Positions 43,014 to 62,239 of a stretch of 64,000 nucleotides of DNA are shown here, in pieces (within the stretch, counting starts at the first letter, position 1; every line of letters starts with the position of its first letter). The notes beneath the pieces are model-generated. The model was given only the letters and a program-made list of their open reading frames with translations. It made no database searches and was not told where the DNA came from. The translations under genes and the position numbers were made by a program. This DNA comes from Candidatus Gastranaerophilales bacterium (GTDB lineage: Bacteria > Cyanobacteriota > Vampirovibrionia > Gastranaerophilales > Gastranaerophilaceae): the NCBI GenBank assembly GCA_944326585.1, contig CALVEN010000002.1, positions 1 to 64,000 of the forward strand, given 5' to 3'.

Positions 43014-44093
43014 ATGAAAGACACACTGCGTTATAAAAAAATCGGGATACCAAGAGCGATATCATATTACAATAATTACCCTTTTTATTACGGATTTTTC
43101 AAATCATTAGGGTTGGAGATAATTTTATCCGATAAAACCACTACCGCTATTATAAACAGCGGGACAAAATACGTTGTATCCGATACCTGTCTGCCCGTAA
43201 AAGTTTACGCAGGGCATGTAGTCAACCTGCTTGAAAAAGGCTGCGAAACTATATTTATCCCCTCAATCCAGTCAACGGATTATAAAATAAACAACTGCAG
43301 CAAAATCCGCGGGCTTCCGGAAATTATAAGAAACATAATTAACAAACCTTTTACAATAATAGAACCAACACTGGACAAAACAGAAGGCTTAGGTTTTTAT
43401 GATTTTTGGACAGAAACCGCAAACGCTCTCGGCATAAAAGACCAAAAGACAATAAAAAATGCCGTGGATGCAGGCTGGAAAATTTATGACGATTTTATGA
43501 CAATGACCAATTCCGGAGTTTCTTATAATGAAGCTTTGCAAAACGCAATTGAGGGAAAATTATTAAAGAAAACAGTAGACATTGTAAAACCTCTGTCCGT
43601 TGTTATTATGGCACATGGCTATAATCTTTTTGACGAAAGAATTTCTCTGAATTTAATCAAAAAACTTGAAAAAATGGGAGTAAAAGTATATACATCCTTA
43701 AATATTTCAAGAGAACAGTCACAAGAGGCTCTCAAAAAACTCGGCGAAATTCAATACTGGGCAAACGAACTTGAATTAACCGGATGTGCAGCACATTACC
43801 TTTTGAATAAAAAAGTTGACGGAATAATAGCGCTTTCCGCATTCGGCTGCGGTCCCGATTCATTAATGGTCGATGAAATTTCCCATCATTGCAAAGAAAA
43901 AGGCATGCCGTTAATTCATTTAACAATTGATGAACATACGGGAGAAGCCGGATTTATAACGCGCATTGAAGCTTTTGTCGATATGTTGATGAGAAAGAAA
44001 AGAAATACACTTATTCAAAACGCCAAACCAAAAGCTAAAGCGGATATTATTAATATCAAAAAAGAAAAAATTCTCACAGGTTCTGCAAAATGA
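43014..44093 (+). CDS. Acyl-CoA dehydratase activase-related protein (DUF2229-like), first of pair
   Basis: About 359 residues from ATG 43014. Resembles the DUF2229 part of the large activase-related proteins linked to 2-hydroxyacyl-CoA dehydratases, here as a stand-alone protein without the ATPase activator domain. Start RYKKIGIPRAISYYNNYPFY, cysteine motifs SDTCLPVKVYAGHV (about 61-74), GCETIF, INNCSKI, ELTGCAAHYLL (about 259-269), FGCGPDSLMVDE (about 285-296), then IDEHTGEAGFITRIEAFVDML. The cysteines may bind a 4Fe-4S cluster. TTGATT-N18-TATACT (42954-42983) is a likely promoter. Stop overlaps the PHP gene start by 4 nt. Confidence 0.8.
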   Translation: MKDTLRYKKIGIPRAISYYNNYPFYYGFFKSLGLEIILSDKTTTAIINSGTKYVVSDTCLPVKVYAGHVVNLLEKGCETIFIPSIQSTDYKINNCSKIRGLPEIIRNIINKPFTIIEPTLDKTEGLGFYDFWTETANALGIKDQKTIKNAVDAGWKIYDDFMTMTNSGVSYNEALQNAIEGKLLKKTVDIVKPLSVVIMAHGYNLFDERISLNLIKKLEKMGVKVYTSLNISREQSQEALKKLGEIQYWANELELTGCAAHYLLNKKVDGIIALSAFGCGPDSLMVDEISHHCKEKGMPLIHLTIDEHTGEAGFITRIEAFVDMLMRKKRNTLIQNAKPKAKADIINIKKEKILTGSAK

Positions 44094-45076
44094 ACACTAC
44101 AGCCTCTCAATTTCATATATTCCCGGGCGCAGTTCATATCCATACAACATTTTCAGACGGGACGGGAAATATTGATCAGATAACAAAAGCCGCAAAAAAA
44201 GCCGGTTTAAAATGGGTCATAATAACCGATCATAACAATACGGATATTGAAGAAGGCTTCTACAACGGGATTTGCGTAATAAAAGGAGAAGAAATATCAC
44301 CTGAAGCCTCTGACCATTACATTGCATTAGATATAAAAAATACCATAATTCCCGATAAAGGTATAAAAAATTCCGTACACGAGGTCAGAAATCAAGGCGG
44401 CTTCGGTTATGCCGCACATCCTGATGAATCCGACACACGAAAAAATAACGCAAGCCCCATCTGCTGGACGGATAAATCAGTTATTCCGGACGGAATAGAA
44501 ATATGGAACTGGTTTTCGGATTGGGCGGATAATTACGACAGTTCAAATATTTTTAAAATCGCATACGCATATTTTTTTAAACATAAGATTATAAAAGGAC
44601 CGCACACAGAAACTCTAAAGTGGTGGGATGACTTAAGCAAAGTATACCCTTGTATTCTTGCAATAGGCGGGGTTGACGCACATGCTCTAAAAATATCAAA
44701 ATATTTAATTCCGGTAACAATTTTTCCTTATAAAGACATGTTTAATACCATTGTAAATTATTTTATTTTAGAAGAATCTGTTCCGGAAAGCTTTGAAGAA
44801 CAGAAAAATCTTATTCTGAACCTGCTCAAAAGAGGCAAAAATATTATTATCAACCGTGCCGTGAAAAATATTTATCCACTGATATATAAAAACGACAATT
44901 ATTTGACGGTTAAATTATTTTGCCGTGCCGAAATAAGAATCATACATAATGGTGATATTATTTTTCAAAAACGCACTGACAATTTGAGTTATGAACTTGA
45001 ACCTGATAAAAAATACAGGATTGAAATTTACCTCAATAATACATCCTGGTTATACACTAATTTTATAAGTTTATGA
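44090..45076 (+). CDS. PHP-domain phosphoesterase
   Basis: 328 residues. Metal-site motifs of the polymerase/histidinol phosphatase family: VHIHTTFSDGTG (about 16-27), ITDHNNTD (about 44-51), KGEEIS (about 66-71), YAAHPDESD (about 105-113), GGVDAHAL (about 198-205). Short form, probably a small-molecule or nucleotide phosphatase; the C-terminal about 80 residues are beta-rich and look like a separate add-on domain. It lies between, and overlaps or closely abuts, the two activase-related genes, so it likely acts in the same pathway. Confidence 0.85.
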   Translation: MNTTASQFHIFPGAVHIHTTFSDGTGNIDQITKAAKKAGLKWVIITDHNNTDIEEGFYNGICVIKGEEISPEASDHYIALDIKNTIIPDKGIKNSVHEVRNQGGFGYAAHPDESDTRKNNASPICWTDKSVIPDGIEIWNWFSDWADNYDSSNIFKIAYAYFFKHKIIKGPHTETLKWWDDLSKVYPCILAIGGVDAHALKISKYLIPVTIFPYKDMFNTIVNYFILEESVPESFEEQKNLILNLLKRGKNIIINRAVKNIYPLIYKNDNYLTVKLFCRAEIRIIHNGDIIFQKRTDNLSYELEPDKKYRIEIYLNNTSWLYTNFISL

Positions 45077-45089
45077 TAGGATAATTTTT

Positions 45090-46238
45090 ATGGAAACAGA
45101 ACAAAAATTAGCTGAAAAAGAAATTAAAATTCGTGCAAAAGACAGAATAATCGCCTGGCCGAGAATGGGCAGAATTGATATACCTTTAAAGGCGCTTGTT
45201 CAATCACTCGGCGCAAAAGTCGTCATACCGCCGGCAAACAGCAATGAGGCGCTTGAATTGGGCGTTAGAAACAGTATAGAAGGAATTTGTCTTCCGTATA
45301 AATTAAATCTTGCAAATTACATGATGGCGCTGGATAAAGGTGCAAATACACTTATGATGTTTCAGGCTCCGGGGTCTTGCCGACTCGGAAATTACACCAA
45401 AATGGCTCAAAAGACTTTAAAACAAATGGGCTATAAATTTGACATGGTAATTTTTGATATGTACAAAAGTAAAATGGTGCAAACACTTCAGGCTTTCTGG
45501 CACGTAACTCACTGTCTTAATCCTTATTGTTATTATAAAGGTTTCAGCCTCGGATTTAATAAACTTTTTGCGATTGATACGGCAGAACGTTTATTATTTT
45601 ACACACGACCGAGGGAATTAAATAAAGGAGATGCCGAAAAATGTTACCATAAGTGGCTGAGAATCGCAGACGAAACGAATTCCGTAAGAAAGGCAAAACG
45701 TCTGAAAAAACAGGTAATAGAAGATTTTAAAAAAATTCCGATAGACAAAGACAAAAAAGTTCCGAAAGTCTATTTAATCGGAGAATTTTTTGTACTGCTG
45801 GATCCTTACACCAACCAGAATATAGAAAAGGAACTCGGGGAAATGGGAGTGGAAGTTCAGCGTCAGATAATGTTTTCGGATTGGCTGGAACACGTTTTGA
45901 AACCGTCAATTTTTTATAAAAAAGAATCCCACAGAGAACGATGCGTCAAATATGCAAAAAAATATATGAAACGTGCAATAGGCGGTGAATGCATTGAAAC
46001 AATAGGGGATACGGTTTATGCCGCAAAACACGGAATAGACGGTATTATACACATTTCACCGTTTTCCTGCATGCCGGAGATTGTTGCGCAAAATATTTTG
46101 CCTAAAGTGAGTAAAAATGAAAATATTCCGGTACTGTCGCTCGTTCTGGATGAGCAAACAGGCAAAGCAGGCTATATCACAAGGATTGAAGCCTTTATAG
46201 ATTTGATAAAACGCAGACAGCAAAAATATGCGATTTAA
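45090..46238 (+). CDS. Acyl-CoA dehydratase activase-related protein (DUF2229-like), second of pair
   Basis: 382 residues, paralogous in plan to the gene at 43.0 kb. Seen: IAWPRMGRIDIPLKALVQSLGAKVV, EGICLPYKLNLANYM (about 67-81), QAPGSCRLGNY (about 92-102), GGECIETIGD (about 294-303), SPFSCMPEIVAQNIL (about 322-336), LDEQTGKAGYITRIEAFIDLI. The C-terminal signature is almost the same as in the first protein, which suggests two homologous subunits that together make a cluster-binding heterodimer, like dehydratase component A/D chains. No ATPase activator or acyl-CoA dehydratase subunit is in the window. TTTTT-rich SD region is weak. Confidence 0.8.
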   Translation: METEQKLAEKEIKIRAKDRIIAWPRMGRIDIPLKALVQSLGAKVVIPPANSNEALELGVRNSIEGICLPYKLNLANYMMALDKGANTLMMFQAPGSCRLGNYTKMAQKTLKQMGYKFDMVIFDMYKSKMVQTLQAFWHVTHCLNPYCYYKGFSLGFNKLFAIDTAERLLFYTRPRELNKGDAEKCYHKWLRIADETNSVRKAKRLKKQVIEDFKKIPIDKDKKVPKVYLIGEFFVLLDPYTNQNIEKELGEMGVEVQRQIMFSDWLEHVLKPSIFYKKESHRERCVKYAKKYMKRAIGGECIETIGDTVYAAKHGIDGIIHISPFSCMPEIVAQNILPKVSKNENIPVLSLVLDEQTGKAGYITRIEAFIDLIKRRQQKYAI

Positions 46239-46335
46239 TATTAAGTTTGTAAAGCAATTATTACCCGAACAGGCTAATTTTTCTTGTAAATTGCGATGTT
46301 CATGATACAGTAAACTTATAAGAGGAGAGGTTAAG

Positions 46336-47391
46336 ATGCTTACAAAATCCCGAAATAATATGAATTTTGAACGATTAAAATATTACAGACATCTCGGCGG
46401 AGGAGCTTTGGAATGTATAGCAAGCCGTCTGTCTAAAACTCCGAAACCTTTGTGTTTTTCTTTGATGGTAACAAGTGCCTGCAACTGTGACTGCGATTTC
46501 TGTTTCTGGAAATCCAAAAAAGGGCAGGACGATATGCCCAAAGAAGAAATCATAAGACTTTTAACGGAAGCAGGACAAATCGGTTATCTGGACAGTATTC
46601 TCTGGGGCGGTGAACCTCTTTTAAGACAGGATTTTGATGAAATTTGCAAGGCCTCTCATGATGCCGGACTTTATACAAAAATCGCAACAAACGGCTGGTT
46701 TTTGGAATCCAATCCCGGTTTTGCAAAATATACGGATTTGATGTTTGTATCACTTGATGCAATCGGAAAAGCTCACGATGACATCCGCCATCTGCCCGGA
46801 ATCTGCGATAAAGTTATGAGCGGGATAGAATACCATAAAATTCATTCTCCCAAAATGAGAATTTATGTTTGCTGTACCGTATCAACACAAACCGATTTTG
46901 GACAAATAAAAGAGGTCGCTCAATATTGTAAAGATGCGGATATTTTATTATACTTTACGGTTAACAAAGCGGCTTCAATACCTGACGAAGCAGAAAATGT
47001 TATTGAAACAGAACTTGAAAACGACCAATTATCCGAAATGTTCATAAAGATTAAAGAACTTAAAAAACAGGGATATCCTATAAGAAATTCTTACTATTTT
47101 ATGGATTACATAATTAATAAGAAAACCTACTATGAATGCCACTGGCCGAGAATCGCCACCGTAATTTATTCTAACGGTGATATGCTGAGATGCTATGACA
47201 GAAAACCTTTTATAAGCGTCAGAAACAGACCTTTAAAAGACGTCATAAAAGATCCTTTGTTTATTGAAACCGTAAACAAATGCAAGGATTGCAAACTTGC
47301 TTGCGTCGGCAACTATGCGCTGGATGCGTCAGGTTTATGGCGACTTGAATGGCCGGCTATTAAATCATTGATGGAAATTGCTATAACTTAA
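46336..47391 (+). CDS. Radical SAM protein with SPASM-like C terminus
   Basis: 351 residues. CX3CX2C cluster motif in TSACNCDCDFCFW (about 48-60), GGEPL (about 92-96) as SAM-binding strand, then a C-terminal cysteine set (CHWPRIATVIYSNGDMLRCYDR and CKDCKLACVGNY, quoted in pieces, about 256-335) that may hold a second cluster as in SPASM/twitch proteins. Strong SD GAGGAGAGG before the ATG. It follows the activase-related pair by 97 nt and precedes the SLBB exporter by 12 nt. Substrate unknown. Confidence 0.85.
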   Translation: MLTKSRNNMNFERLKYYRHLGGGALECIASRLSKTPKPLCFSLMVTSACNCDCDFCFWKSKKGQDDMPKEEIIRLLTEAGQIGYLDSILWGGEPLLRQDFDEICKASHDAGLYTKIATNGWFLESNPGFAKYTDLMFVSLDAIGKAHDDIRHLPGICDKVMSGIEYHKIHSPKMRIYVCCTVSTQTDFGQIKEVAQYCKDADILLYFTVNKAASIPDEAENVIETELENDQLSEMFIKIKELKKQGYPIRNSYYFMDYIINKKTYYECHWPRIATVIYSNGDMLRCYDRKPFISVRNRPLKDVIKDPLFIETVNKCKDCKLACVGNYALDASGLWRLEWPAIKSLMEIAIT

Positions 47392-49867: not shown

Positions 49868-50725
49868 TTATGATTTAATCAATTTAATTGATTTCGGGGC
49901 GATATTAATTACTATATCGCCTTTAAATTTTACTTTTTCACCGTCAATGTGACCTGTTGTGATGTCATTTTTTATTGTTAAATTTGTTGTCCGGAAATAC
50001 ATTGCCTTTGAATTTGAACTTTTTTTGTTAAAAATTATCTGCAAAAATTCAGCAAAAAACAAAAACGGATTTTTCACTTTTAAAATAAATACATCCATAA
50101 TCCCGTCATCAATTTGGCAATTTTTAGAAATAGAGAATAAATTCTTATACATATTACCGGCATTTGCGACTATTATACACGTTGCAAGAACAGATAACTT
50201 TTTGCCTGCAAATGTCATATAATACTTTTTTTGTTTAAGTCTGAGTGCAAACAGAATTCCGGCGATAAAATACGCAAAATAACCGAATTTGTTTTTCAAA
50301 GACTGCGGAGTTTTACAAATTATATCGGCATCATAGCCTAATCCCGCACGCAATATTGAATATTTATCCGCGACTTTAAATACATCAGCTTCAACAAAAT
50401 TTTGTCTGTCAATAATTTCAAGTGCCTTTTTAATATTAACCGGGATTCCGAGTTTTGCAGCAAGCAAATTCGCCGTGCCGCAAGGGATTATACCGAGTGC
50501 TTTATCGGTATTTATAATCAACGGAACGATTTTATTTACCGTTCCATCGCCGCCTATTGCAATAACCGTATCAAAATCTTCAATATTTATAAGATGCAGA
50601 TTCTCTAATGAAATACTTTTAAATTTTACGCCGCGGTCAAATAAAAAACGAATAACATTTTTCTTATACAATACTGATTTTTTTCTTCCGGCATTAGCAT
50701 TTTCTACGACCAATACATTTTTCAT
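49868..50725 (-). CDS. Diacylglycerol kinase-family lipid kinase
   Basis: 285 residues. Catalytic motif IAIGGDGTVNKIV (about 56-68) and GIIPCGTANLLA (about 78-89) of DAGK/YegS/DgkB-type kinases. C-terminal beta-sandwich (about 125-285: DDGIMDVFILK, GHIDGEKVKF). It should phosphorylate diacylglycerol or a related lipid at the membrane, recycling it to phosphatidate. Convergent with the SLBB gene; stop codons 1 nt apart. Leaderless promoter (see 50732-50737). Confidence 0.9.
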   Translation of the reverse strand: MKNVLVVENANAGRKKSVLYKKNVIRFLFDRGVKFKSISLENLHLINIEDFDTVIAIGGDGTVNKIVPLIINTDKALGIIPCGTANLLAAKLGIPVNIKKALEIIDRQNFVEADVFKVADKYSILRAGLGYDADIICKTPQSLKNKFGYFAYFIAGILFALRLKQKKYYMTFAGKKLSVLATCIIVANAGNMYKNLFSISKNCQIDDGIMDVFILKVKNPFLFFAEFLQIIFNKKSSNSKAMYFRTTNLTIKNDITTGHIDGEKVKFKGDIVINIAPKSIKLIKS

Positions 50726-50737: not shown

Positions 50738-50825
50738 CACACTTAATAAAAGTTAGCAACAGAATTATTTTTAATAATATCTCTTTTGTTTGCGCTATAA
50801 TAATTATATTAATAAGGAGTATAAA

Positions 50826-52343
50826 ATGAGAGTAGAAAAACAATCCACAGTCTGGCAGCCGAATTCAATGGGCAGATTTGACAGATTAAAACTAAAATTT
50901 AACGACTTTGCAATTGATATGTTATTAAATTATTTAGGACATAATTTCAGCAAAGAAAAATTAATTAACCTTGCAAAAATATTCGAAAAAATTTCCGGCT
51001 CCAAAGGCGGAATAAATCACGCACGAAGAATGCAATGGCTTTTTAAATCCGAACATCCGCACCTTTATTGGTGGAAAAAGATTTTAACCGAATTACATCC
51101 AAATTGCCGCAACAAATGGATAAAAAACTTCTTTGTAAACGGATACTACGGCGACAATTTGAGAAAACGGACGAAATTCAACGAGAAAAACGGATTTTTC
51201 CCGCCGACAGTTCTGCTTGCAAGTATTACAAAACGCTGCAACTTCAACTGTAAAGGCTGCTGGGCGCATGAATATGACGTAAAAGAAGATTTATCAAAAG
51301 AAAAATGGAGAGAAATCTTTACGGAAGCCCGCGATGTTATGGGTATTCACATAATCCCTGTTGTGGGCGGCGAACCGTTTGCCAGAAAAGAATTTTTAGA
51401 GCTGGCTGAAGAATTTAATGACTGCGTATTCATAACATTTACAAACGGTTCATTAATTACCGAAAAGACAGTTGAAAAATTGAAAAAACTCGGAAATGTT
51501 CAGCCTATGTTTTCAATCGGCGGGATGAAAGAAAACACAGATACCGTAAGAGGCGAAGGCTGCTTTGATATGGTTATGGAAAAAATGGACATGTTGAAAA
51601 AAGCCGGAATATTTTTCGGTGCCAGCATAACCGCTACAAGCCAAAATTGTGATGAGGTTACATCGGATGAATTTATGAAAATGTTATCCGATAAAGGGTG
51701 TCTTTGGGCATGGTTCTTCCATTACGTACCTGTAGGCGACAGCCCTGACGTTAGTATGGTTCCTAATGCTCAGCAGCGTCAGCAGATTTTAAAAGCTGTA
51801 TATAATGCCAGAAACACTCTGCCTATGATGACAGTTGATTTTTGGGGTGACGGCCCTGAAATGATGGGATGTATTGCAGGCGGCAGACAGTATATTCATG
51901 TTAACCCGAGAGGAGATGTCGAACCATGTACTTTTGTTCACCTTGCAACACACAACCTGAAAGATTGCACGCTTACAGAAGCGCTTGCATCACCCTTTAT
52001 GCGTGCAATAAGGGATGGTATTCCTTATGAAGACGGTAATATGCTAAGACCGTGTATGATTGTCGATAGACCTGAGGTTTTGAGAAGCTATTATGAAAAA
52101 TTCAAGCCTTATGAAACTCACGAAAATGCGGCTGCATATTTGACCAATCCTGAAATTACATCTAAAATTGACCAGTATTCAAAAGATGTTAAAGAAATTC
52201 TGGATAAAGATTGGCGTGAAAACCTCTGGATGACGATATTCCCGCTTGAAGGCGAATATTATATCGACAGAGATCATTTCTGTTCAAAAGAAAAGCCGTC
52301 TGCCGTTAAATGCGAAGGAAAATGCGCATGCTGCGTAAAATAA
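50826..52343 (+). CDS. Radical SAM/SPASM-type enzyme, possibly lipid-linked
   Basis: About 505 residues from ATG 50826 (AAGGAG 6 nt upstream). N-terminal helical part (about 1-125, DFAIDMLLNYLGHNFSKEK), radical SAM core with CNFNCKGCWAHEYD (CX3CX2C, about 136-149), PVVGGEPFARKEF (about 176-188), FTNGS, and VNPRGDVEPCTFVH (about 358-371) plus later cysteines (RPCMIVD, KCEGKCACC at the very end). The terminal CxxxCxCC motif is unusual. Translationally coupled to a PAP2 phosphatase and opposite a lipid kinase. The substrate could be a membrane lipid, but a peptide or sugar is not excluded. Confidence 0.85.
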   Translation: MRVEKQSTVWQPNSMGRFDRLKLKFNDFAIDMLLNYLGHNFSKEKLINLAKIFEKISGSKGGINHARRMQWLFKSEHPHLYWWKKILTELHPNCRNKWIKNFFVNGYYGDNLRKRTKFNEKNGFFPPTVLLASITKRCNFNCKGCWAHEYDVKEDLSKEKWREIFTEARDVMGIHIIPVVGGEPFARKEFLELAEEFNDCVFITFTNGSLITEKTVEKLKKLGNVQPMFSIGGMKENTDTVRGEGCFDMVMEKMDMLKKAGIFFGASITATSQNCDEVTSDEFMKMLSDKGCLWAWFFHYVPVGDSPDVSMVPNAQQRQQILKAVYNARNTLPMMTVDFWGDGPEMMGCIAGGRQYIHVNPRGDVEPCTFVHLATHNLKDCTLTEALASPFMRAIRDGIPYEDGNMLRPCMIVDRPEVLRSYYEKFKPYETHENAAAYLTNPEITSKIDQYSKDVKEILDKDWRENLWMTIFPLEGEYYIDRDHFCSKEKPSAVKCEGKCACCVK

Positions 52344-52945
52344 TTGTTTTTACGGCAGTATTTTTGATATTTACATCGTTAATAGTCTTCTGTCCTGTTG
52401 TAACCCAATGGGACAGAAGTGTTATAATATTTTTGCAGGATAAGCTCGGATTTTTGCCAATACAAATTTTCAAACTGCCTGATTGTATTCTGTATTCCAT
52501 AATGATAGCACTGCCGCTTGTAGGGTTCGGGGTGTATTTTGTAACTAAAAAGTTATACAAAGACGCTGTTTTTTTATGCTCAGTGCCTTTAGTGACATAT
52601 ATTTTAAATTACATACTAAAACACATCATATGCCGTCCAAGACCGCCTTTCGAATTGCAAATCGCAGGAATTCATCCGGATAGTTACAGCTATGTATCAA
52701 CGCACAGTCTTGTAATGTTTTGCCTCTGGGGAATGGTTATATGGTATTTGTATAAATATTGTAATAATAAATCGTGGCGTATAATCGGGATTAGTATTTC
52801 AGTATTATGGATTTTATTTGTAGGCTTAAGCAGAGTTATGACAGGTGTCCATAACCCCACAGACGTTTTGGGCGCGTATCTTTTGGGAATAGTTCTATTG
52901 ATTTGCTTTTTGGATTTGAGGAATTATTTAATCAAAACTTCCTGA
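52328..52945 (+). CDS. PAP2-family membrane phosphatase
   Basis: About 205 residues. Six or so TM helices. Motifs KHIICRPRPP (K-x6-RP), YVSTHSLV (usual PSGH; Thr replaces Gly, Ser before it) and SRVMTGVHNPTDVLGAY (SR-x5-H-x3-D). Dephosphorylates lipid phosphates such as undecaprenyl pyrophosphate or phosphatidate on the periplasmic side. Overlaps the end of the radical SAM gene; the start could be any of three ATGs (52310, 52322, 52328), with GAAGG favouring the last. Its end overlaps the convergent wzz gene by 22 bp. Confidence 0.88.
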   Translation: MLRKIIVFTAVFLIFTSLIVFCPVVTQWDRSVIIFLQDKLGFLPIQIFKLPDCILYSIMIALPLVGFGVYFVTKKLYKDAVFLCSVPLVTYILNYILKHIICRPRPPFELQIAGIHPDSYSYVSTHSLVMFCLWGMVIWYLYKYCNNKSWRIIGISISVLWILFVGLSRVMTGVHNPTDVLGAYLLGIVLLICFLDLRNYLIKTS

Positions 52946-54285
52946 GCAACTTTTTTGTTCATTTCCATAAGCATTGTTTTTATTTGTTTATAAAGCTTGG
53001 AATTTGTTTTGCCGACAGTTGCAAATATTATAACTTCAGCCGAATTTTTAACGCTTTCGACAAATTCACCGGAGATATCCGCCTTTATCAGATGAATATT
53101 TCTAAAGCTTTGTAATTGCGGAATAATATTTTCAGGGATATTCTCAAAACAAACAAGAGAAATATTTTTGTCCTGATTTGCCAGTAATAATAACTTCAAA
53201 TCCGAAAAATCATTTTCTAAATCGTAAATAATATTTTCTCCGAGCATTGAATATGTAAGCTTTTTATCTGTTATTTCAGCAAAAATTACTGCAAATAATG
53301 ACGCAATAAAACCAAAAACAATACCCAGAAGAATGTTTATAAGAAGCTTGGGTGAAGAATATTCAAAATCTCTGAGTTTTTGCGGCTCCTTGATTACAAG
53401 TACTTTAGAGGAATCAGACATTTTGTCAACCATTTTTGCCCATTCAAGTTTTGAGGATAAATTTGCAACTTTGGCAGCTTCTTCAGTAACTTCAATTCTG
53501 GAACGTTCACCGGAAACTACCTGACCTTTTAGCGTTGACAAAGCCCTCTGTGCACTATTTGAGAATGCCCCCATTGCAGCAAGATTACCTGTAGACATCA
53601 TTGATTGCTCGGGTAATCCGCTCATCGTATTAACTTTTTGATTTAATGCCTGCTTGGCTCTATTATATTCAGCTTCTAAAATCTTTTGGTCAGATTTAGC
53701 TTTATCGCTGTTTAATTGTTTGTGAAGTTCAATGTAATTGTTTATAATAGAATTAACGACGTTATAAGCTAACTCCGGATCTTTATTTTTATACTCAATC
53801 GATAAAACATTTGTGCCTTTTTTGTTTTCAAAAGAAATATTCTTTTTTAAAAATGCTTTTGTAGAAATAAATTCGCCTTCTTTTTTATTAGGAATGATGC
53901 CCCATCTTTTTTTATAGACTAAATTGTTTTCACGAATAACTTTATCAATAACCAGTGGTGATTGGATAAGTTCCATTTCATTTATTAAAGTTCCTCCACC
54001 ACCTGCCATTAATGCTGCGACACCACCTGCGCCGCCTAATTCTTCTATAGCATATGGGTTAATTTCCATCATATTTGAACTGTTCGCTTTGTTTATATAT
54101 AAATCGCTTTCAACAGAATATTTTTTAGGCAATATAAAAGTTAATGTTATAAATAAAACTAATATTGTAAAGAATATTTTAATAATCAAATATTTTTTAT
54201 TCCAAAGTACGAAAAATATTTTTTTTAAATCAATCGTTAATTCTTCATCAATTTCTTCCTGCGGGATATAAACTGCCTGCTGCAT
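52924..54285 (-). CDS. wzz: Wzz/polysaccharide co-polymerase
   Basis: 453 residues. N-terminal TM (about 31-52, LIIKIFFTILVLFITLTFIL), periplasmic helical domain (about 55-310) and C-terminal TM (about 318-340, PKLLINILLGIVFGFIASLF) with Pro-Lys before it. A C-terminal cytosolic tail of about 110 residues follows (LENDFSDLKLLLLANQDKNISLV) without a Walker A, so it is not a functional Wzc tyrosine kinase but a degenerate one is possible. Sets chain length of a Wzy-dependent polymer with the SLBB exporter. SD AAAGGAG before the ATG. First gene read from the locus on the minus strand boundary. Confidence 0.9.
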   Translation of the reverse strand: MQQAVYIPQEEIDEELTIDLKKIFFVLWNKKYLIIKIFFTILVLFITLTFILPKKYSVESDLYINKANSSNMMEINPYAIEELGGAGGVAALMAGGGGTLINEMELIQSPLVIDKVIRENNLVYKKRWGIIPNKKEGEFISTKAFLKKNISFENKKGTNVLSIEYKNKDPELAYNVVNSIINNYIELHKQLNSDKAKSDQKILEAEYNRAKQALNQKVNTMSGLPEQSMMSTGNLAAMGAFSNSAQRALSTLKGQVVSGERSRIEVTEEAAKVANLSSKLEWAKMVDKMSDSSKVLVIKEPQKLRDFEYSSPKLLINILLGIVFGFIASLFAVIFAEITDKKLTYSMLGENIIYDLENDFSDLKLLLLANQDKNISLVCFENIPENIIPQLQSFRNIHLIKADISGEFVESVKNSAEVIIFATVGKTNSKLYKQIKTMLMEMNKKVAQEVLIK

Positions 54286-54344: not shown

Positions 54345-55928
54345 TTAAGCAACAGGTTGTTTTATTTTATACAAAGTAGATGTTATAAAATTAATATTAA
54401 TTTTTTTAGACAATTTAGAAATTTCCTCTGACATAATATCATTTCTTTCATCAAATTCATTTACCTTAGCATTATTTATCAAATCATCAGAAACATAATT
54501 ATCCGTTGCAACTGGGCTGAAGCCGTCGAGTCCTGCCATTGTAACTGATTTTATACCTATTTTTATAAACAAATTCAACAACATCAAAGCTACATTATCA
54601 AACATCTTTGAATCATTCAAATAAGATGAGTAATTAAGGACACGAGCCTGTGGAGGAATATCTTCAATATTGGAAGAAACAACCAACGGCGTCATATAAT
54701 TGTTCAATGTGGTAAAACGTTTCATATTAGTCACAAATACAAGATTTTCCTTAAATTGCTCCGGAATAAAGTTCAAAGAAATTATAAAAGGATTTTCCTG
54801 TTTTATAAAATTATTAATTTTCTGTAGTTCTTCTTTCAAAGATTTACCGGGTGCAAGAATAAGAATCTTCTTATTTGTAAGCAAATTTTTCATATATTCA
54901 ACAGTTTTGCTGTCATCAACAACCTTTGAAAATTTATCCAAATACAATTGTTTAATCAAATTTGCATCATAGATAGACTTTTTGTTATCAGGAATTGATT
55001 TCAAAAGATTATTAATAAATTCTACAGGTACAGTCTGTTTATCCACAAGGTATTTTGCATAATTCGGGTGACAGTGATTTGTCGCGGCTAAATAATATGG
55101 TACTGAATATCCCCAAGGAGTTTTAGCGAATATCGGATTTATTTGTTCATCTATTATTTTTAATATTGGAATTATATCATAATGTCCGTTATAATTATCG
55201 TTAATGTACTGTGTGATAAGCTCAGTACAAAGATTCCCTGCGCCACGTCCCATACCAAAAACGGTTGAATCGATAATAAGTTCTCTATTTTTGCAAACTT
55301 TCATTAAACATTGTGCATTTGAAAATGATAATTGCAAATTATTATGGGAATGGAAGCATAGAGCAATATCTTTGTTTAAATTATGATCAATTAAATAGTA
55401 TAATCTTAACAAATCGTCTTCTTTTAAGACTCCCATAGAATCTACTATTGACATTCCATAAGGCCTGATATCATTTATATCTTTAATTACATCAAGTATT
55501 TCTTCATCAGTAAATTGATCAATAAAAGTTGGATTAATAAAAAGTTTATACCCCTTTGATTTCAACTTTTTACAGTAAACCATTGCCTTATCTTTTTGGC
55601 TTTTCTTAAAAATTAATCTTATTCCTTTAATAATTGAATCTTTAACATCAGGAACTTTTTCAATAGAAAATTTACCATAAGTAATCATACCGAACAATTT
55701 TTCTTTATCAATATTAAAAGGCACAAATCTTTTAATATCTTCAAATGAATTAAATAAGGTTTTTGAAACTGTTGTTGTTTCCTCTGTTAAAAAACCTGTT
55801 TCAATATAATCAATATTCGATTTTGATAACGAAGCTAATATTTGTCTGCATTTATCAAGTCCAAAATCCCATTCGTTTATATATCCACCATCACGCAAGG
55901 TACAGTCTAAAACTTTTATATTTAACAT
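54345..55928 (-). CDS. HMGL-type aldolase with C-terminal unknown domain
   Basis: 527 residues. N-terminal TIM barrel of the HMG-CoA lyase/4-hydroxy-2-oxovalerate aldolase group: DCTLRDGGY (8-16, metal Asp and Arg), YIETGF (41-46), SIVDSMG (160-166), CFHSHNN (191-197, two metal His), VFGMGRGAGN (223-232). The domain ends near 345. Residues about 353-527 (ILILAPGKSLKEEL, FVTNMKRFTTL, VTMAGLDGFSP) recall the GT42/MptE-DUF115 fold (GxGxSL start), not proved. Such aldolases join pyruvate to an aldehyde. In a glycan locus it may make a keto-sugar acid. Overlaps the cytidylyltransferase-like gene by 7 nt. Confidence 0.8.
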   Translation of the reverse strand: MLNIKVLDCTLRDGGYINEWDFGLDKCRQILASLSKSNIDYIETGFLTEETTTVSKTLFNSFEDIKRFVPFNIDKEKLFGMITYGKFSIEKVPDVKDSIIKGIRLIFKKSQKDKAMVYCKKLKSKGYKLFINPTFIDQFTDEEILDVIKDINDIRPYGMSIVDSMGVLKEDDLLRLYYLIDHNLNKDIALCFHSHNNLQLSFSNAQCLMKVCKNRELIIDSTVFGMGRGAGNLCTELITQYINDNYNGHYDIIPILKIIDEQINPIFAKTPWGYSVPYYLAATNHCHPNYAKYLVDKQTVPVEFINNLLKSIPDNKKSIYDANLIKQLYLDKFSKVVDDSKTVEYMKNLLTNKKILILAPGKSLKEELQKINNFIKQENPFIISLNFIPEQFKENLVFVTNMKRFTTLNNYMTPLVVSSNIEDIPPQARVLNYSSYLNDSKMFDNVALMLLNLFIKIGIKSVTMAGLDGFSPVATDNYVSDDLINNAKVNEFDERNDIMSEEISKLSKKININFITSTLYKIKQPVA

Positions 55929-56602
55929 ATTCCATTCATCCTATATTTTTTATACATAAATTCAGCAAACTCAAAATCTATTTCATTATCTATATCAATA
56001 CACTCTATAGAATCTAATTCATATAGTAAAGGGTGATTCCCGACAATACTTGAATTTTTAATACCATATTCTTTAGTGAAAATATTTATTGCAAAATTTA
56101 AAGCAAATATATTAGGGAGATCCTGGCTTTTAGGCATTTTGTCAATTGAATAATTTAAAGGAATATTATCTTTCCACAAAAATTCCTTAATTAAATGTGC
56201 CGAATTTAATGTATCATATTTATTTGATTTGTTCAGAAATGTTTTTATTGCTTGATTTAAAGAAGTATCCATAAGAAGAGGATTTGTGGCATTAACATAA
56301 ACGATTATATCAGCATTTGTTGTTTCTGAAATATTCTTATATACTTCATTGATAGAAACTGTTGATGATGCAAAATAAGGATCTCGTTTAAACGTTTCCG
56401 CACCAAGAGATTTTGCAATATCTAACATCTCGTCGCTGTCTGAATTTACTACTACTCCGTCTAATTCTTTTATTCTTTGCATTTGTCTTATTTTTATTTC
56501 CAATAAACTGCTGTTTGCAAAGGGACGTATATTTTTATTTTTTACTCTTTGAGAACCAGCTCTTACAGGTATAACTGCTTTTATAATTTTTTCGTTTATC
56601 AC
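55922..56602 (-). CDS. Acylneuraminate cytidylyltransferase-like (NeuA/KdsB family) enzyme
   Basis: 226 residues, usual length. PVRAGSQRVKNKNIRPF (about 11-27) is the CTP-binding signature, with VVVNSDSDEMLDIAK, ADIIVYVNATNPLL (about 104-117) and DNEIDFEFAEF near the C terminus. It should activate a 2-keto sugar acid as CMP-sugar. The sugar could be a nonulosonic acid or other keto-acid made by the adjoining aldolase gene. Two nt from the HAD gene, in the same minus operon. Confidence 0.88.
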   Translation of the reverse strand: MINEKIIKAVIPVRAGSQRVKNKNIRPFANSSLLEIKIRQMQRIKELDGVVVNSDSDEMLDIAKSLGAETFKRDPYFASSTVSINEVYKNISETTNADIIVYVNATNPLLMDTSLNQAIKTFLNKSNKYDTLNSAHLIKEFLWKDNIPLNYSIDKMPKSQDLPNIFALNFAINIFTKEYGIKNSSIVGNHPLLYELDSIECIDIDNEIDFEFAEFMYKKYRMNGIC

Positions 56603-56603
56603 T

Positions 56604-57314
56604 TCATAACTCCTTTATTTGTTTTATTATTTCTTCATAATTATCTGATTTAATATTTGGGGTGACATACCCCCATTTGGCTTGTATACATTTTAAATTT
56701 TTTATATTTTCACACTTTCTTAAATTATCTTCGCTATCGTCTATAAATATCGCTTTCTCTACATTGCGCAATTTCATATAAGCCTTTATAAAATTAGCCT
56801 TGGTTTGATATTCTTTTAATTTTTCTTTACCTATTATTCTTTCCTCACTCAAAATGAATTTATAATCATCAAAGTGATTTTTTATCGCAAACTCATTCTT
56901 TGTAGACAAAATAATTATATCATAATCATTTTTAATGGAATTGATCATGTAAAAAAATGGATAAGGTGCTTCTAAACTTTTCCAAAATTCATAATCACGT
57001 TCTATTAAATATTTTCGTTGCTCTTGATATTTTTTATCAAACAAACCATCTCTCACTAACATACGGTTTTTTATAAGTCTATAATATTCCTGCTCAAAAA
57101 TGTCATTATCAGTGCCACTATCTATCAACTTTAGAATATAATAATAATGCCAAGAATGAGTTATTAGATAACGATATTTTTTAAATTTCAGATAATGAAT
57201 TGCATCTATTTTTTCTTTTATTGGTATGTTATAAAATGAATATCTAGCTAATAAATAGGCCTCTTTTACACTATCAAACAAAACGCCATCAAAATCTAAG
57301 AATATTGTTTTCAT
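56604..57314 (-). CDS. HAD-superfamily hydrolase
   Basis: 236 residues. Motif I FLDFDGVLFDS (about 5-15, nucleophile Asp), motif II IILSTKN (about 132-138), motif III Lys in VEKAIFIDD, motif IV IFIDDSEDN (about 191-199). Size and cap suit a sugar-phosphate phosphatase. In this operon it may dephosphorylate a sugar acid phosphate before CMP activation, as NeuD/KdsC-type steps do. Overlaps the PP-loop gene by 4 nt. Confidence 0.87.
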   Translation of the reverse strand: MKTIFLDFDGVLFDSVKEAYLLARYSFYNIPIKEKIDAIHYLKFKKYRYLITHSWHYYYILKLIDSGTDNDIFEQEYYRLIKNRMLVRDGLFDKKYQEQRKYLIERDYEFWKSLEAPYPFFYMINSIKNDYDIIILSTKNEFAIKNHFDDYKFILSEERIIGKEKLKEYQTKANFIKAYMKLRNVEKAIFIDDSEDNLRKCENIKNLKCIQAKWGYVTPNIKSDNYEEIIKQIKEL

Positions 57315-58837
57315 ACTTTTACCTCTTCTGAAAATTCTAAAGTATTCATTTTGTTATAAAAATTTTTATACACTTCTTGTTCATACTGCCTGAATGTTTT
57401 TTCTTGTTTTATCTCTTTTTTATAATTTTTCTTTTTCTTGATATTTGGCATTTCATAATGAAATACATCTTTTAGAATTTTATATACTACTGATTTAGGA
57501 TGATAAATTTCATATTTATAATCTGTATTTTGAACTGTTGAATAAATAATTTGGGGTGTACCAAACATAAATATTGAATGAAAACCATATTTTTCACAGT
57601 TTTGAACATTTACATAATTATCAGAACCTTGTATAAAACCAAATATTTTTAAATACATCATTTTAGCAAATTTATTAGAAAAATTTGTACATAATTGATT
57701 AAGAATTGATTTAATCATATTAAAATATTTTTCATTCTTGTCTTTATCAATTAATGGCATATAAAATTTTTCATCATAAAATGCAATAAAATATTCTTTA
57801 ATATTTTTAACATTTTTTAAATTACGACATTGAGGTCTAAAAATTTTTATTATCATCAAAAACAATCTGCTTAATAAACAAAATGGCTTATTTAATATTG
57901 TACGGATAAAAAATTGCCCGATATTCTTTTCTGTTGGACCAAAACCTAATATAGAATCAGCTGCTTGTCCATTTAGCAAAACTATATCCTCTCCATATTT
58001 TTCTTTCAATTCTTCAACTACAACAAAAAACAATTGAGTAATACTCCTATCCATAAACATCGTATCAATAATCTCGGTATCAATATGTTTTGTTGTATTA
58101 ATTTTAATTTCAGCAAGTTCAATTCCCAATTTGTCAGCAGAATATAGAACTTTCAATGTATCATCATAATTCATAGAATTTGTTGGGATATGTTTTGCAA
58201 AAACCGGTATAAAATCAACATTTTGTTCTTGCAACATTTTTACACAAAGAGTTGAATCTGCTCCCCCTGAAAATAATAGAAATTTTTTCTGTGGTAAATT
58301 CTTTATCAAAGAAACAGTATCTCTCATATCAGCTAAAACTTCTTCAAAATGTCTTTTTCGATTTGGTTTATTTTCTAAATCTTTAAAATATAAATTTTCT
58401 TCAATTTTGTCAGGATAAAATTTATAAATATGGGCCGGTTTAATTTTATGAATTTTTGTACAAACAGTTTCTCCACCGGTTGTATAACGATGTTTATCCC
58501 AATATTCTATTTCAAATTTATTAGGTTCACGTTCTTCTTTTGAGAACATATTAAACAAAATTAAAAAATCATTGGAAAAATAAGTTGTATCATCCTTTTG
58601 CATATAATATGTTCTATAATTTGCCATAATGTCATTTATAATTTCGATATAATCATCATAAAATTTTATAAACGTGTAATAACCCTTTATTTTATCAATC
58701 TGTGTTTTATTGAAATTTTCAACATCCATATTATAAGGAAATCCCATTACAATAGTATTTTCGTCCTCATAATATGGTTTGTGTTTGAATATAAATTTAA
58801 AAGTTTTATTGCCGATTTTAATTTCTTTATTTAACAT
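57311..58837 (-). CDS. Asparagine synthase-like PP-loop amidotransferase protein
   Basis: 508 residues. PP-loop ATP motif FLLFSGGADSTLCVKML (about 186-202) with SGGADS at 190-195 as in AsnB C-terminal domains. The N-terminal about 150 residues resemble an eroded glutaminase domain (GYYTFIKFYDD, YFSNDFLIL) but the protein starts MLNKEI with no Cys2, so glutamine hydrolysis is unlikely. It would need ammonia or an amine from elsewhere. In surface-glycan loci relatives amidate sugar acids or build amidines. Overlaps the HAD gene by 4 nt. Confidence 0.8.
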   Translation of the reverse strand: MLNKEIKIGNKTFKFIFKHKPYYEDENTIVMGFPYNMDVENFNKTQIDKIKGYYTFIKFYDDYIEIINDIMANYRTYYMQKDDTTYFSNDFLILFNMFSKEEREPNKFEIEYWDKHRYTTGGETVCTKIHKIKPAHIYKFYPDKIEENLYFKDLENKPNRKRHFEEVLADMRDTVSLIKNLPQKKFLLFSGGADSTLCVKMLQEQNVDFIPVFAKHIPTNSMNYDDTLKVLYSADKLGIELAEIKINTTKHIDTEIIDTMFMDRSITQLFFVVVEELKEKYGEDIVLLNGQAADSILGFGPTEKNIGQFFIRTILNKPFCLLSRLFLMIIKIFRPQCRNLKNVKNIKEYFIAFYDEKFYMPLIDKDKNEKYFNMIKSILNQLCTNFSNKFAKMMYLKIFGFIQGSDNYVNVQNCEKYGFHSIFMFGTPQIIYSTVQNTDYKYEIYHPKSVVYKILKDVFHYEMPNIKKKKNYKKEIKQEKTFRQYEQEVYKNFYNKMNTLEFSEEVKV

Positions 58838-60088
58838 TTAATTCTCCTTATAAATCCATAATTTATGTTTATACACTCCGTATGCTCTTATTGAAAGCAT
58901 TATTACATAAGGTAAAATTGTCAGATATGCAAGAGTCATCATATCCAATACTTTCATAAAATATAATATACAGAGCATAATACCATGAATCAATGCAGCT
59001 ATAGGAAGTGATATATTAACAATTTTTGAATATCCCATTGCACCTAAAAGCGGATAACCAATCAACCCTGAAACAGATGAAAACAAAACTGTTATACAGA
59101 ATATTCTTAATACTTTATATGCTTCTAACATTTCAATACCATAAAAAATAGCTATAATCTCTTTTGCAAAAATAAATACAAAACCAGATATTAAGAACAT
59201 TGCAATAACCGTAGGATAAAAAATTTTTTTATATAAATTTACATTTTTATTTTTAGAAATTTGAGGATAAATAGCTGTCGCTATCGGAGATGTAAGCATA
59301 TGAATTGCATTAAAAATTTTTTCAGCCGCTACATAATATCCGACCAAAATAGGAGGCGCAACAACTCCCAAAACAAAAGCATTTGTATTTGTATAAATGG
59401 TATTGGCAATATTGGCAGAAAAATATTCAAAACTATATTTGAATTCATGCAAAATACTACTCCATTTAGGAATTGTCAATTTTAGACCAAAACGTCTATT
59501 TGCAATAATAATACTTAAAATTCCAGCAATCACAAAACCTAATGAATTTAGAACTGCGACATATAAATAGTCGTCAGGTGATTTTATGAAAATAAATATT
59601 AGGATTAAAAATACACTTTGCGAAACAATTTTAAGAAAAGTTACATATTTCATGTGTTCAATGCCTTGAAAATACCAAATTGGATAGATTGCATTACCAA
59701 TGACCATAAAAAAAGTTAAAAAGAATAATAGCCATTCATTATTGAATTTTGGCACAAATAAAACCAATAAAAATAAAACAATAAAACATAAAATTATCAA
59801 TATAAATTTAACACCCATAACCGAATTAAAAACTTCAGAAATTTTTTCTTTATCATCTTTTGCTATAGCAATTTCTCTTGAAGCCGACCAATTGAATCCA
59901 TATTCTGTTATCAGCATAAAATATTGAATACAGGCTTGTGCCCAAAAAACAAGCCCAAACTTTTCAACTCCCAAAACTCTTGATAAGTAAGGAAGCGAAA
60001 CTAGTGGTATAACATAAGTAATAACTTGTGTTAATCCTATTGCTATTACATTTTCAAAAAGCTTTTTTTTATTTGATTTTGCAGACAT
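58838..60088 (-). CDS. wzx: Wzx-type polysaccharide flippase
   Basis: 416 residues with about 12 TM helices, MOP superfamily (RfbX/Wzx). Start FENVIAIGLTQVITYVIPLVSLPYLSRVLGVEKFG is the usual N-terminal signature, with WYFQGIEHMKYV and VVAPPILVGYYVAAEKI later. It moves the undecaprenyl-linked repeat unit to the periplasm. Overlaps the upstream acyltransferase gene by 20 nt. Third core element with Wzy-like and Wzz proteins. Confidence 0.93.
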   Translation of the reverse strand: MSAKSNKKKLFENVIAIGLTQVITYVIPLVSLPYLSRVLGVEKFGLVFWAQACIQYFMLITEYGFNWSASREIAIAKDDKEKISEVFNSVMGVKFILIILCFIVLFLLVLFVPKFNNEWLLFFLTFFMVIGNAIYPIWYFQGIEHMKYVTFLKIVSQSVFLILIFIFIKSPDDYLYVAVLNSLGFVIAGILSIIIANRRFGLKLTIPKWSSILHEFKYSFEYFSANIANTIYTNTNAFVLGVVAPPILVGYYVAAEKIFNAIHMLTSPIATAIYPQISKNKNVNLYKKIFYPTVIAMFLISGFVFIFAKEIIAIFYGIEMLEAYKVLRIFCITVLFSSVSGLIGYPLLGAMGYSKIVNISLPIAALIHGIMLCILYFMKVLDMMTLAYLTILPYVIMLSIRAYGVYKHKLWIYKEN

Positions 60089-61067
60089 TTCTAAAACCTT
60101 TGATTAATTTTGTTATATATATTTTTATGTAATAAAACAGATAGTAATATAAAATCCCAATCGATAATGAAAGGAATAAATGTTCATAAAATAATAACTT
60201 TTCTTTCAAGAACATTACAACTAAAGATTCTATTAAAAAAATTTCAAGACTTCCCCCCCCAATAAAGTTTAATATTTTAACCAAATATTTCCCAATAGTC
60301 ATCTTGTTTATTAGATTTACAGTATTTACTAATAAAAATATAAGCCCAGGAATAAATAAAAGCATACTATAATACATTAAACCATATTTAAAACGTATTT
60401 TATAAAAAATAGTATAAGTGATTATTAAACATATAAAACCTATGGCAGATAAAAATATAGTAAACAAAAATGATTTTTTATTCAACTGAACTTGTTTTTT
60501 GAAATACTGACCGACACAAAGACCAATAAAAAATATTGGGACTCTAGCTATCCCTTGTATTCTTCCATCTCCCCAAAAAGGTATTGATAATAGCAGAATA
60601 AATAATAAAAATAAAATTTTATTGCTAATACTATGCAAATGTTTATTTATAATATCCACTAAAATCGGAGATAAAGTATAGCACAAAAAAGCATATGATA
60701 AATAACCAAAAGCTCTATTATCTAACCAAAAATTTTCAAGAGTAAAAATTCCGACAATTTGATGAAATATAGTTAACTTTATAATAAAAATATAAATTAT
60801 AAATATCGGAATTGCAGGCAGAAAACGTTTTATGCGTCTTAAATAAAAATTACCTAAATCATTATCCTTATATAAAGAACAATAAATCCCTAACCCTGAT
60901 AAAAATAAAAATATTTCAACTCCCCCATATCCTAATCCACAAAAAGGAAATCTTATAATTTGTGGAATATTAATAGAGATATGTGAATGCCCAAATATTA
61001 TCCATATAATAGCAATACCCATTAAAGAGTTTCTATATTTACTTATATAATTTAATGTATTTTCCAT
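60069..61067 (-). CDS. Acyltransferase family 3 (O-acetyltransferase-like), G8 tract inside
   Basis: 332 residues, about 10 TM helices. MGIAIIWIIFGHSHISI with the conserved His (about 27) and FLFLSGLGIYCSLYKDN, FYLRRIKRFLPAIPIF are OafA/Acyl_transf_3 signatures. It adds O-acyl groups to glycans. A run of eight G on the coding strand (plus-strand C8, 60253-60260) encodes Gly-Gly-Gly near residue 270 (FIGGGSLEIF). Slippage there would shift frame and remove the last about 60 residues, so ON/OFF switching is possible. Overlaps neighbouring genes by 16-20 nt. Confidence 0.88.
   Translation of the reverse strand: MENTLNYISKYRNSLMGIAIIWIIFGHSHISINIPQIIRFPFCGLGYGGVEIFLFLSGLGIYCSLYKDNDLGNFYLRRIKRFLPAIPIFIIYIFIIKLTIFHQIVGIFTLENFWLDNRAFGYLSYAFLCYTLSPILVDIINKHLHSISNKILFLLFILLLSIPFWGDGRIQGIARVPIFFIGLCVGQYFKKQVQLNKKSFLFTIFLSAIGFICLIITYTIFYKIRFKYGLMYYSMLLFIPGLIFLLVNTVNLINKMTIGKYLVKILNFIGGGSLEIFLIESLVVMFLKEKLLFYEHLFLSLSIGILYYYLFYYIKIYITKLIKGFRNVCKIK
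60253..60260 (-). repeat. G8 homopolymer in acyltransferase gene (phase-variation candidate)
   Basis: Eight consecutive C on the plus strand (G on the coding strand) inside a gene of otherwise very AT-rich DNA. The reading frame is intact with 8. Confidence 0.75.
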
Positions 61068-62236: not shown

Positions 62237-62239
62237 TAT

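What the first reader, a model, noticed from the sequence alone, without database searches (positions are those of the whole stretch)
43014..47391. Compact cluster of two activase-related proteins, PHP phosphoesterase and radical SAM protein
Seen: two homologous DUF2229-like proteins with conserved Cys motifs and an almost identical C-terminal TRIEAF signature; a PHP phosphoesterase between them (4-nt overlap with the first); a radical SAM/SPASM protein after. Known: these domains usually form part of large activase-linked proteins for 2-hydroxyacyl-CoA dehydratases, with an ATPase activator. Here ATPase and dehydratase are absent. Inference: the pair may form a stand-alone Fe-S heterodimer for a low-potential reaction on a phosphorylated substrate dephosphorylated by the PHP protein. 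I know of no described pathway with this set.
Basis: partly seen in the sequence, partly recalled or inferred. Interest (0 to 1): 0.72.

Follow-up and report, generated by a model that had tools for sequence, protein, structure and literature searches.

The report
Co-inherited Fe-S reductase and radical-SAM envelope cassette
In gut-dwelling non-photosynthetic relatives of cyanobacteria, the spotted genes belong to a larger set that is inherited all together or not at all; it couples an oxygen-sensitive iron-sulphur reductase pair (relatives of the enzymes that make ether lipids in anaerobes) to two radical enzymes, lipid-phosphate enzymes and a polysaccharide exporter, so it probably makes an unusual cell-envelope lipid or glycan that nobody has described.

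Summary
The four genes are real and where described. The genome is a Gastranaerophilales MAG (non-photosynthetic Cyanobacteriota). The reading needs changing in three ways. (1) The two DUF2229 proteins (A2, B2) are not activases: each keeps exactly three invariant cysteines, and the B2 model matches benzoyl-CoA reductase, 2-hydroxyacyl-CoA dehydratase and DCCP catalytic subunits (Z 13-17). In fused plasmalogen-synthase/glycerol-ester-reductase-like proteins the order is ATPase-ATPase-A-B, so A2 and B2 are its two reductase modules, here split. (2) The ATPase is not absent: one stand-alone activase is encoded elsewhere, along with a housekeeping A1/B1 pair present throughout the family. (3) The cluster is longer: A2-PHP-B2-rSAM1-SLBB exporter-DAG kinase-rSAM2-PAP2. 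PHP, B2, rSAM1, SLBB and rSAM2 occur together in 23 of 97 family genomes and none of the five in 72; seven genera are mixed; the set stays complete when scattered over the chromosome. rSAM2-PAP2-DAGK is a constant trio. Best reading: an activase-driven Fe-S reductase in a lineage-specific envelope pathway, most likely lipid ester reduction with radical-SAM modification, tied to capsule export. The substrate is not shown. New variant of a known kind.

The parts
43014..44093 (+). A2: DUF2229 + HGD-D-tail protein; reductase-type Fe-S subunit, invariant C59 C95 C279
44090..45076 (+). PHP-family metallohydrolase (nearest NCBIfam model CehA/McbA, below its cut-off); metal-site residues H16 H18 H48 E68 H110 D196 H198 invariant in 47 sequences
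45090..46238 (+). B2: DUF2229-like reductase-type Fe-S subunit, invariant C67 C97 C327; predicted fold of BCR/HAD/DCCP catalytic subunits
46336..47391 (+). rSAM1: radical SAM protein, C49xxxC53xxC56 plus invariant C268 C286 C316 C319 C323
47404..49866 (+). SLBB/Poly_export outer-membrane polysaccharide-export type protein; same genome distribution as A2-PHP-B2
49868..50725 (-). DAGK_cat/YegS-type lipid kinase; constant neighbour of rSAM2
50826..52343 (+). rSAM2: radical SAM protein, C150xxxC154xxC157 (numbered from the TTG at 50790; conservation starts at Met13, so the start is probably ATG 50826)
52310..52945 (+). PAP2-family lipid phosphatase with complete motifs (K104..R111, S130..H132, S174 R175..H181); overlaps rSAM2 by 34 nt
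52924..54285 (-). Wzz-type chain-length protein, first gene of the adjoining capsule cluster; often next to rSAM2 elsewhere
54345..63664 (-). adjoining Wzx/Wzy-type polysaccharide cluster (HMGL-like, cytidylyltransferase, Asn-synthase-like, flippase, acyltransferase, polysialyltransferase-like, Wzy-like); context, not constant

Best explanation
A2 and B2 form a heterodimeric, oxygen-sensitive Fe-S reductase of the benzoyl-CoA reductase / 2-hydroxyacyl-CoA dehydratase superfamily. They correspond to the two 'Red' modules of plasmalogen synthase (PlsA) and glycerol ester reductase (Ger), encoded as separate genes and energised by the genome's single stand-alone activase ATPase, which also serves the housekeeping A1/B1 pair. 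The pair works in an optional pathway, inherited as a unit, that builds a modified envelope lipid. The reductase most likely converts a lipid-bound acyl ester (or hydroxyacyl group) to an ether or deoxy form; the PHP hydrolase and the PAP2 phosphatase/DAG kinase pair process the head group or the DAG/phosphatidate pool; the two radical-SAM enzymes modify the chain or glycan; and the product is coupled to SLBB/Wzz polysaccharide export, possibly as a lipid anchor. Shown: gene content, fold class of B2, cysteine triads, the single ATPase, co-inheritance, the rSAM2-PAP2-DAGK trio. Inferred: heterodimer, sharing of the ATPase, lipid substrate, ester-to-ether chemistry, order of steps, anchor role.
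For: Three invariant Cys in each of A and B across cassette, housekeeping, A-B-ATPase-operon and fused proteins. B2 model, pLDDT 87.6, top ten PDB matches all BCR/HAD/DCCP catalytic subunits, Z 13.2-16.8 over about 300 residues. Fused 1431-1432-aa proteins ordered ATP-ATP-A-B in Tepidibacter and Desulforamulus, a longer-branched one in Sporotomaculum, and an A-B fusion beside a separate ATPase in an Armatimonadota MAG; the fused architecture matches PlsA/Ger as described in PMC13274423 and PMC12838417. One activase in the genome, in all 83 good-quality family genomes. Co-occurrence of PHP, B2, rSAM1, SLBB, rSAM2: same 24 genomes with two fragmentary exceptions; Fisher p 3e-23 to 5e-20, not corrected for relatedness, but seven genera contain both complete-set and no-set genomes. 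Set complete though split over distant sites in G073, G012 and G044. rSAM2 adjoins PAP2 and DAGK at nine unlinked sites and in most linked loci; a PlsC-type acyltransferase follows SLBB in rumen lineages. PL23b MAGs carry rSAM2-B2-A-B1 in one cluster without PHP or exporter, so the rSAM2-B2 link predates the cassette.
Against: A2/B2 group with the separate A-B-ATPase operons, not with fused PlsA/Ger proteins, two of which have lost the TRIEAF motif. The function of that separate subfamily is unknown: PMC13274423 calls the role of PlsA homologues lacking activation domains unclear, and its neighbours in Desulfotomaculia are not lipid genes. Clostridial homologues of rSAM2 (34-40%) have no constant lipid neighbour. 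The exporter and capsule genes fit a sugar substrate as well. DUF2229 also occurs in aerobes such as Thermus. No lipid data on these uncultured bacteria were found.
Confidence: 0.42

Rival explanations
1. The cassette decorates a capsule sugar: the A2B2 reductase and the radical-SAM enzymes deoxygenate or rearrange a nucleotide-sugar or glycan unit that SLBB/Wzz exports; PAP2, DAGK and the acyltransferase serve the lipid carrier.
For: SLBB exporter has the same genome distribution as the cassette; Wzx/Wzy cluster adjoins it; SLBB follows rSAM1 in nearly every linked locus.
Against: The sugar genes around the cassette vary between genomes while rSAM2-PAP2-DAGK is constant; PL23b has rSAM2-B2-A-B1 without an exporter beside it; by general knowledge the characterised members of the superfamily act on CoA esters or acyl lipids, not sugars.
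Confidence: 0.26
2. The rSAM proteins are peptide or cofactor modifiers (SPASM-like) and A2B2 reduces a modified peptide or small cofactor; the envelope genes are bystanders.
For: Nearest NCBIfam models of both rSAM proteins are mostly cofactor or peptide maturases, far below their cut-offs.
Against: No conserved small precursor ORF was noticed in the 50 loci, though ORFs under 90 aa were not analysed; the lipid-type and exporter genes are co-inherited or constant neighbours, not bystanders.
Confidence: 0.1
3. A2/B2 is a spare copy of the housekeeping A1/B1 unit with the same reaction, and the gene neighbourhood is incidental.
For: B1 and B2 come from a duplication within Gastranaerophilales; same three cysteines.
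Against: B2 forms its own 100*-supported clade, only 43% identical to B1, and its presence is locked to PHP, rSAM1, rSAM2 and SLBB, while B-type housekeeping proteins are found throughout the 97 genomes.
Confidence: 0.1
4. One reading: a stand-alone heterodimer without ATPase acts on a phosphorylated small substrate that PHP then dephosphorylates.
For: PHP has a complete predicted metal site; no ATPase in the cluster.
Against: Activase ATPase present and universal in the good-quality genomes of the family; A and B are followed by the ATPase gene in most of the other phyla's operons.
Confidence: 0.06

Closest known systems
Plasmalogen synthase PlsA/PlsR and glycerol ester reductase Ger (Clostridium perfringens plsA-plsR; Thermotoga Tmari_0479)
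   Same: Same modules, activase ATPase plus A (Red1) plus B (Red2), with the three-cysteine pattern of each Red module in PlsA/Ger-like fused proteins; anaerobic host
   Different: Modules are separate genes; one shared ATPase far away; A2/B2 belong to the unfused subfamily; extra PHP, two radical SAM, exporter
Unfused A-B-ATPase operons of Bacillota, Chloroflexota, Deltaproteobacteria (DUF2229 with TIGR00241-type activase)
   Same: Same three proteins, 36-41% identity of B2, TRIEAF motifs, three Cys each
   Different: No PHP, rSAM1, rSAM2 or exporter in the operon; function unknown
2-Hydroxyacyl-CoA dehydratases, benzoyl-CoA reductases and DCCP
   Same: Fold of B2 and HGD-D tail; three Cys per subunit; ATP-dependent activator in the genome
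   Different: Sequence far below curated family models; no CoA-pathway genes alongside
Bacterial and archaeal membrane-spanning lipid synthases Mss and Tes
   Same: Enzymes thought to work with Ger-type reductases; rSAM2 is a radical SAM protein of Tes-like length
   Different: No Tes match for rSAM2 by sequence at E 0.001; Mss sequence not available here

Membership tests
BCR/HAD/DCCP superfamily, catalytic subunit | fold of the catalytic subunit | tested here: met
   B2 model: top ten PDB chains all of this superfamily, Z 13.2-16.8; A2 not modelled
BCR/HAD/DCCP superfamily, catalytic subunit | three Cys ligands per subunit | tested here: met
   exactly three invariant Cys in A and in B across four groups
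BCR/HAD/DCCP superfamily, catalytic subunit | ATP-dependent activator (TIGR00241) | tested here: met
   L005, 188.1 bits against cut-off 125.4, elsewhere in the genome
Double-cubane reductase equivalog NF040772 | curated score cut-off | tested here: not met
   A2 19.6 bits against 350; B2 no match
PlsA/Ger | activation domains fused to the reductase modules | tested here: not met
   A2 and B2 are separate 359- and 382-aa genes; own-genome DUF2229 hits lie in frames of 371-397 aa, none fused
PlsA/Ger | both A (Red1) and B (Red2) modules present | tested here: met
   A2 and B2 match the A and B parts of fused proteins
PlsA/Ger | groups with fused proteins in a tree | tested here: not met
   B2 groups with B1 and unfused operons; fused branches are very long, and no sequence of proven function was available
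PlsA/Ger | makes vinyl or alkyl ether lipids | not testable with these tools
   needs lipidomics or expression
Mss/Tes lipid-tail coupling radical SAM | sequence or fold match to Tes | tested here: inconclusive
   no Tes match for rSAM2 at E 0.001; rSAM2 model too poor to search, pLDDT 52
CehA/McbA PHP metallohydrolase NF038032 | curated score cut-off | tested here: not met
   55.2 bits against 80
PHP superfamily | metal-binding His/Asp/Glu set | tested here: met
   H16 H18 H48 E68 H110 D196 H198 invariant in 47
PTO1314 radical SAM family TIGR03961 | curated score cut-off | tested here: not met
   rSAM1 111 bits against 306

The most novel reading that the evidence does not exclude
An undescribed, unit-inherited envelope pathway of gut Gastranaerophilales in which a split Ger/PlsA-type Fe-S reductase and two radical-SAM enzymes make a special ether-type or tail-modified lipid that anchors or accompanies an SLBB-exported capsule; as far as I know it would be the first ether-lipid system assigned to this branch of the Cyanobacteriota.
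Probability: 0.28. Interest if true: 0.78.

Novelty: new variant of a known kind. Interest (0 to 1): 0.56.

Why it matters
PlsA-like proteins without activation domains are common in the genomes screened in the 2026 literature, and their role is stated there to be unclear (PMC13274423). Here one such pair is tied by inheritance to a defined partner set, in close relatives that do or do not have it. That gives a concrete comparison, positives against negatives within seven genera, to learn what these reductases act on, and it adds candidate lipid-modifying radical-SAM enzymes in an animal-gut lineage for which no lipid data were found.

Tried and rejected
rSAM2 structure: the alignment was too uniform, pLDDT 52, so no fold search was run. 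Clostridial homologues of rSAM2 (70 of 245 genomes): neighbourhoods vary (TetR regulators, ABC or ECF transporters), no lipid signal. Genes around A-B-ATPase operons in Desulfotruncus: spore germination, amino-acid decarboxylase, tRNA-related genes, no clue. Defence library: only generic radical-SAM matches to viperin models. Phage families: only generic radical-SAM matches. Promoter and terminator counts do not exceed shuffles. Horizontal spread: rSAM1, rSAM2, PHP and SLBB identities track the core ATPase (Spearman 0.76-0.86), B2 more weakly (0.57), which favours descent with repeated loss over recent transfer but does not prove it. Papers with the defining Mss/Ger and PlsA experiments (Science Advances 2022, ACS Chem Biol 2021) are not held.

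Full report
Observation. The four genes are present as described: A2 43014-44093, PHP 44090-45076 with an ATGA overlap, B2 45090-46238, and a radical SAM gene 46336-47391, all on the + strand. Pfam supports each: DUF2229 plus an HGD-D tail in A2 and B2, PHP, Radical_SAM; the SPASM match is just under the cut-off. The shared TRIEAF tail is the general HGD-D motif and is found across the unfused relatives examined.

Where it is. B2 finds 50 loci in public Gastranaerophilales MAGs or in records that look like them, gut or rumen by their isolate names where these tell. The window's genome is 1.7 Mb with completeness 99.7%. These bacteria are described as diderm fermenters that make lipid A and lack respiration (PMC4040986).

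What A2 and B2 are. They are not activases. An alignment of 75 A-type and 87 B-type proteins shows exactly three cysteines conserved in every group: A2 C59, C95, C279; B2 C67, C97, C327. The B2 model (pLDDT 87.6) matches only subunits of benzoyl-CoA reductase, 2-hydroxyisocaproyl-CoA dehydratase and double-cubane reductase at the top, Z 13.2-16.8 over about 300 residues, with the next unrelated rows at Z 10 over about 118 residues. In Tepidibacter and Desulforamulus a 1431-1432-aa protein has the order ATPase-ATPase-A-B, with a longer-branched third case in Sporotomaculum; an Armatimonadota MAG has A-B fused beside a separate ATPase. Papers give activation domains and reductase domains in one chain or operon as the plan of PlsA and Ger, which make vinyl and alkyl ether lipids (PMC12838417, PMC13274423). 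A2 and B2 are therefore the split reductase modules of that kind of enzyme. Assignment to PlsA or Ger itself fails: there is no fused activation domain, and A2/B2 group with unfused A-B-ATPase operons whose role is unknown.

The ATPase. The genome has one full activase, C3:30725-31729 (L005), a TIGR00241 member above cut-off, similar to HgdC and MbdQ. It is present in all 83 good-quality genomes of the family sample. A housekeeping pair is also present: A1 at C4:38686-39756 and B1 at C9:17097-18242, with B-type or A-type relatives in all 97 genomes. That the one ATPase serves both pairs is an inference from its being the only one.

The cluster is longer. In Gastranaerophilales loci A2-PHP-B2 is followed by rSAM1 and an 800-residue SLBB/Poly_export protein, then in many genomes by a DAG-kinase-type gene, rSAM2 and PAP2, and Wzz. 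In the same 97 genomes, PHP and B2 occur in the same 24; rSAM1 in 23 of these; rSAM2 and SLBB in 23 of these plus one fragmentary genome (G054). The one genome lacking the rest (G058) has its contig end inside B2. Seven genera contain both complete-set and no-set species. In G073, G012 and G044 the genes lie at distant sites, yet the set is complete, so linkage alone does not explain it. Where rSAM2 stands apart it is flanked by PAP2 and DAGK each time: nine sites, with two further contig fragments too short to judge. In rumen lineages a PlsC-type acyltransferase follows SLBB. A few loci keep A2-PHP-B2 without rSAM1 beside it (L088, L089, L101).

Origin. B1 and B2 arose by a duplication inside Gastranaerophilales. 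Two MAGs (PL23b) carry rSAM2-B2-A-B1 as one cluster without PHP or exporter beside it, so the rSAM2-B2 link is older than the cassette. A2 forms its own clade, next to the PL23b A protein with moderate support (89). Trees were quick searches with SH-aLRT support only. Identities of rSAM1, rSAM2, PHP and SLBB across genomes track the core ATPase, B2 less so; with the patchy distribution this suggests repeated loss more than recent transfer.

Mechanism. Shown: catalytic-type fold of B2, cysteine triads, a full set of predicted PHP and PAP2 active-site residues, CxxxCxxC motifs in both radical SAM proteins, a single activase, co-inheritance. Inferred: the activase delivers low-potential electrons with ATP to an A2B2 dimer; the dimer reduces a lipid-bound acyl ester or hydroxyacyl group; DAGK, PAP2, PHP and the acyltransferase set up or finish the glycerolipid; the radical-SAM enzymes act on chain or glycan; the product goes with an SLBB-exported polysaccharide. 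The lipid reading rests on the superfamily's described PlsA/Ger members and on the constant PAP2-DAGK-rSAM2 trio. The main rival is a capsule-sugar modification, because the exporter is part of the set.

Novelty. No paper describing this gene set was found in the held library. The parts belong to known superfamilies; the combination, its unit inheritance and its place in gut Cyanobacteriota are new. It is rated as a new variant of a known kind.

Noticed in passing
L109, L124: Two records labelled 'uncultured Acinetobacter' carry the Gastranaerophilales cassette, 78-80% identical in B2; the labels look wrong.
   Followed up: no
control genomes: DUF2229 also rings in Thermus and Deinobacterium, aerobes, although the relatives with known function are oxygen-sensitive enzymes.
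   Followed up: no
L128:5787-6350: In PL23b MAGs the rSAM2-B2-A-B1 cluster is preceded by an epoxyqueuosine reductase QueH gene and a protein that looks like a VKOR/thioredoxin-type disulphide enzyme (the latter read by eye).
   Followed up: partly
window 45090-46238 (B2 residues C142, C185, C301): Three further cysteines conserved in 47-50 of 50 cassette B2 proteins and mostly absent from other B proteins; could be extra ligands or simply close kinship.
   Followed up: no
window 54345-63664: Wzx/Wzy-type cluster with a polysialyltransferase-like protein, a cytidylyltransferase and an HMGL-like lyase; may make an acidic nonulosonate-like capsule.
   Followed up: partly
window 50790-50826: rSAM2's first 12 listed codons are not conserved and several genomes have a stop inside the match; the true start is probably the ATG at 50826.
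   Followed up: partly
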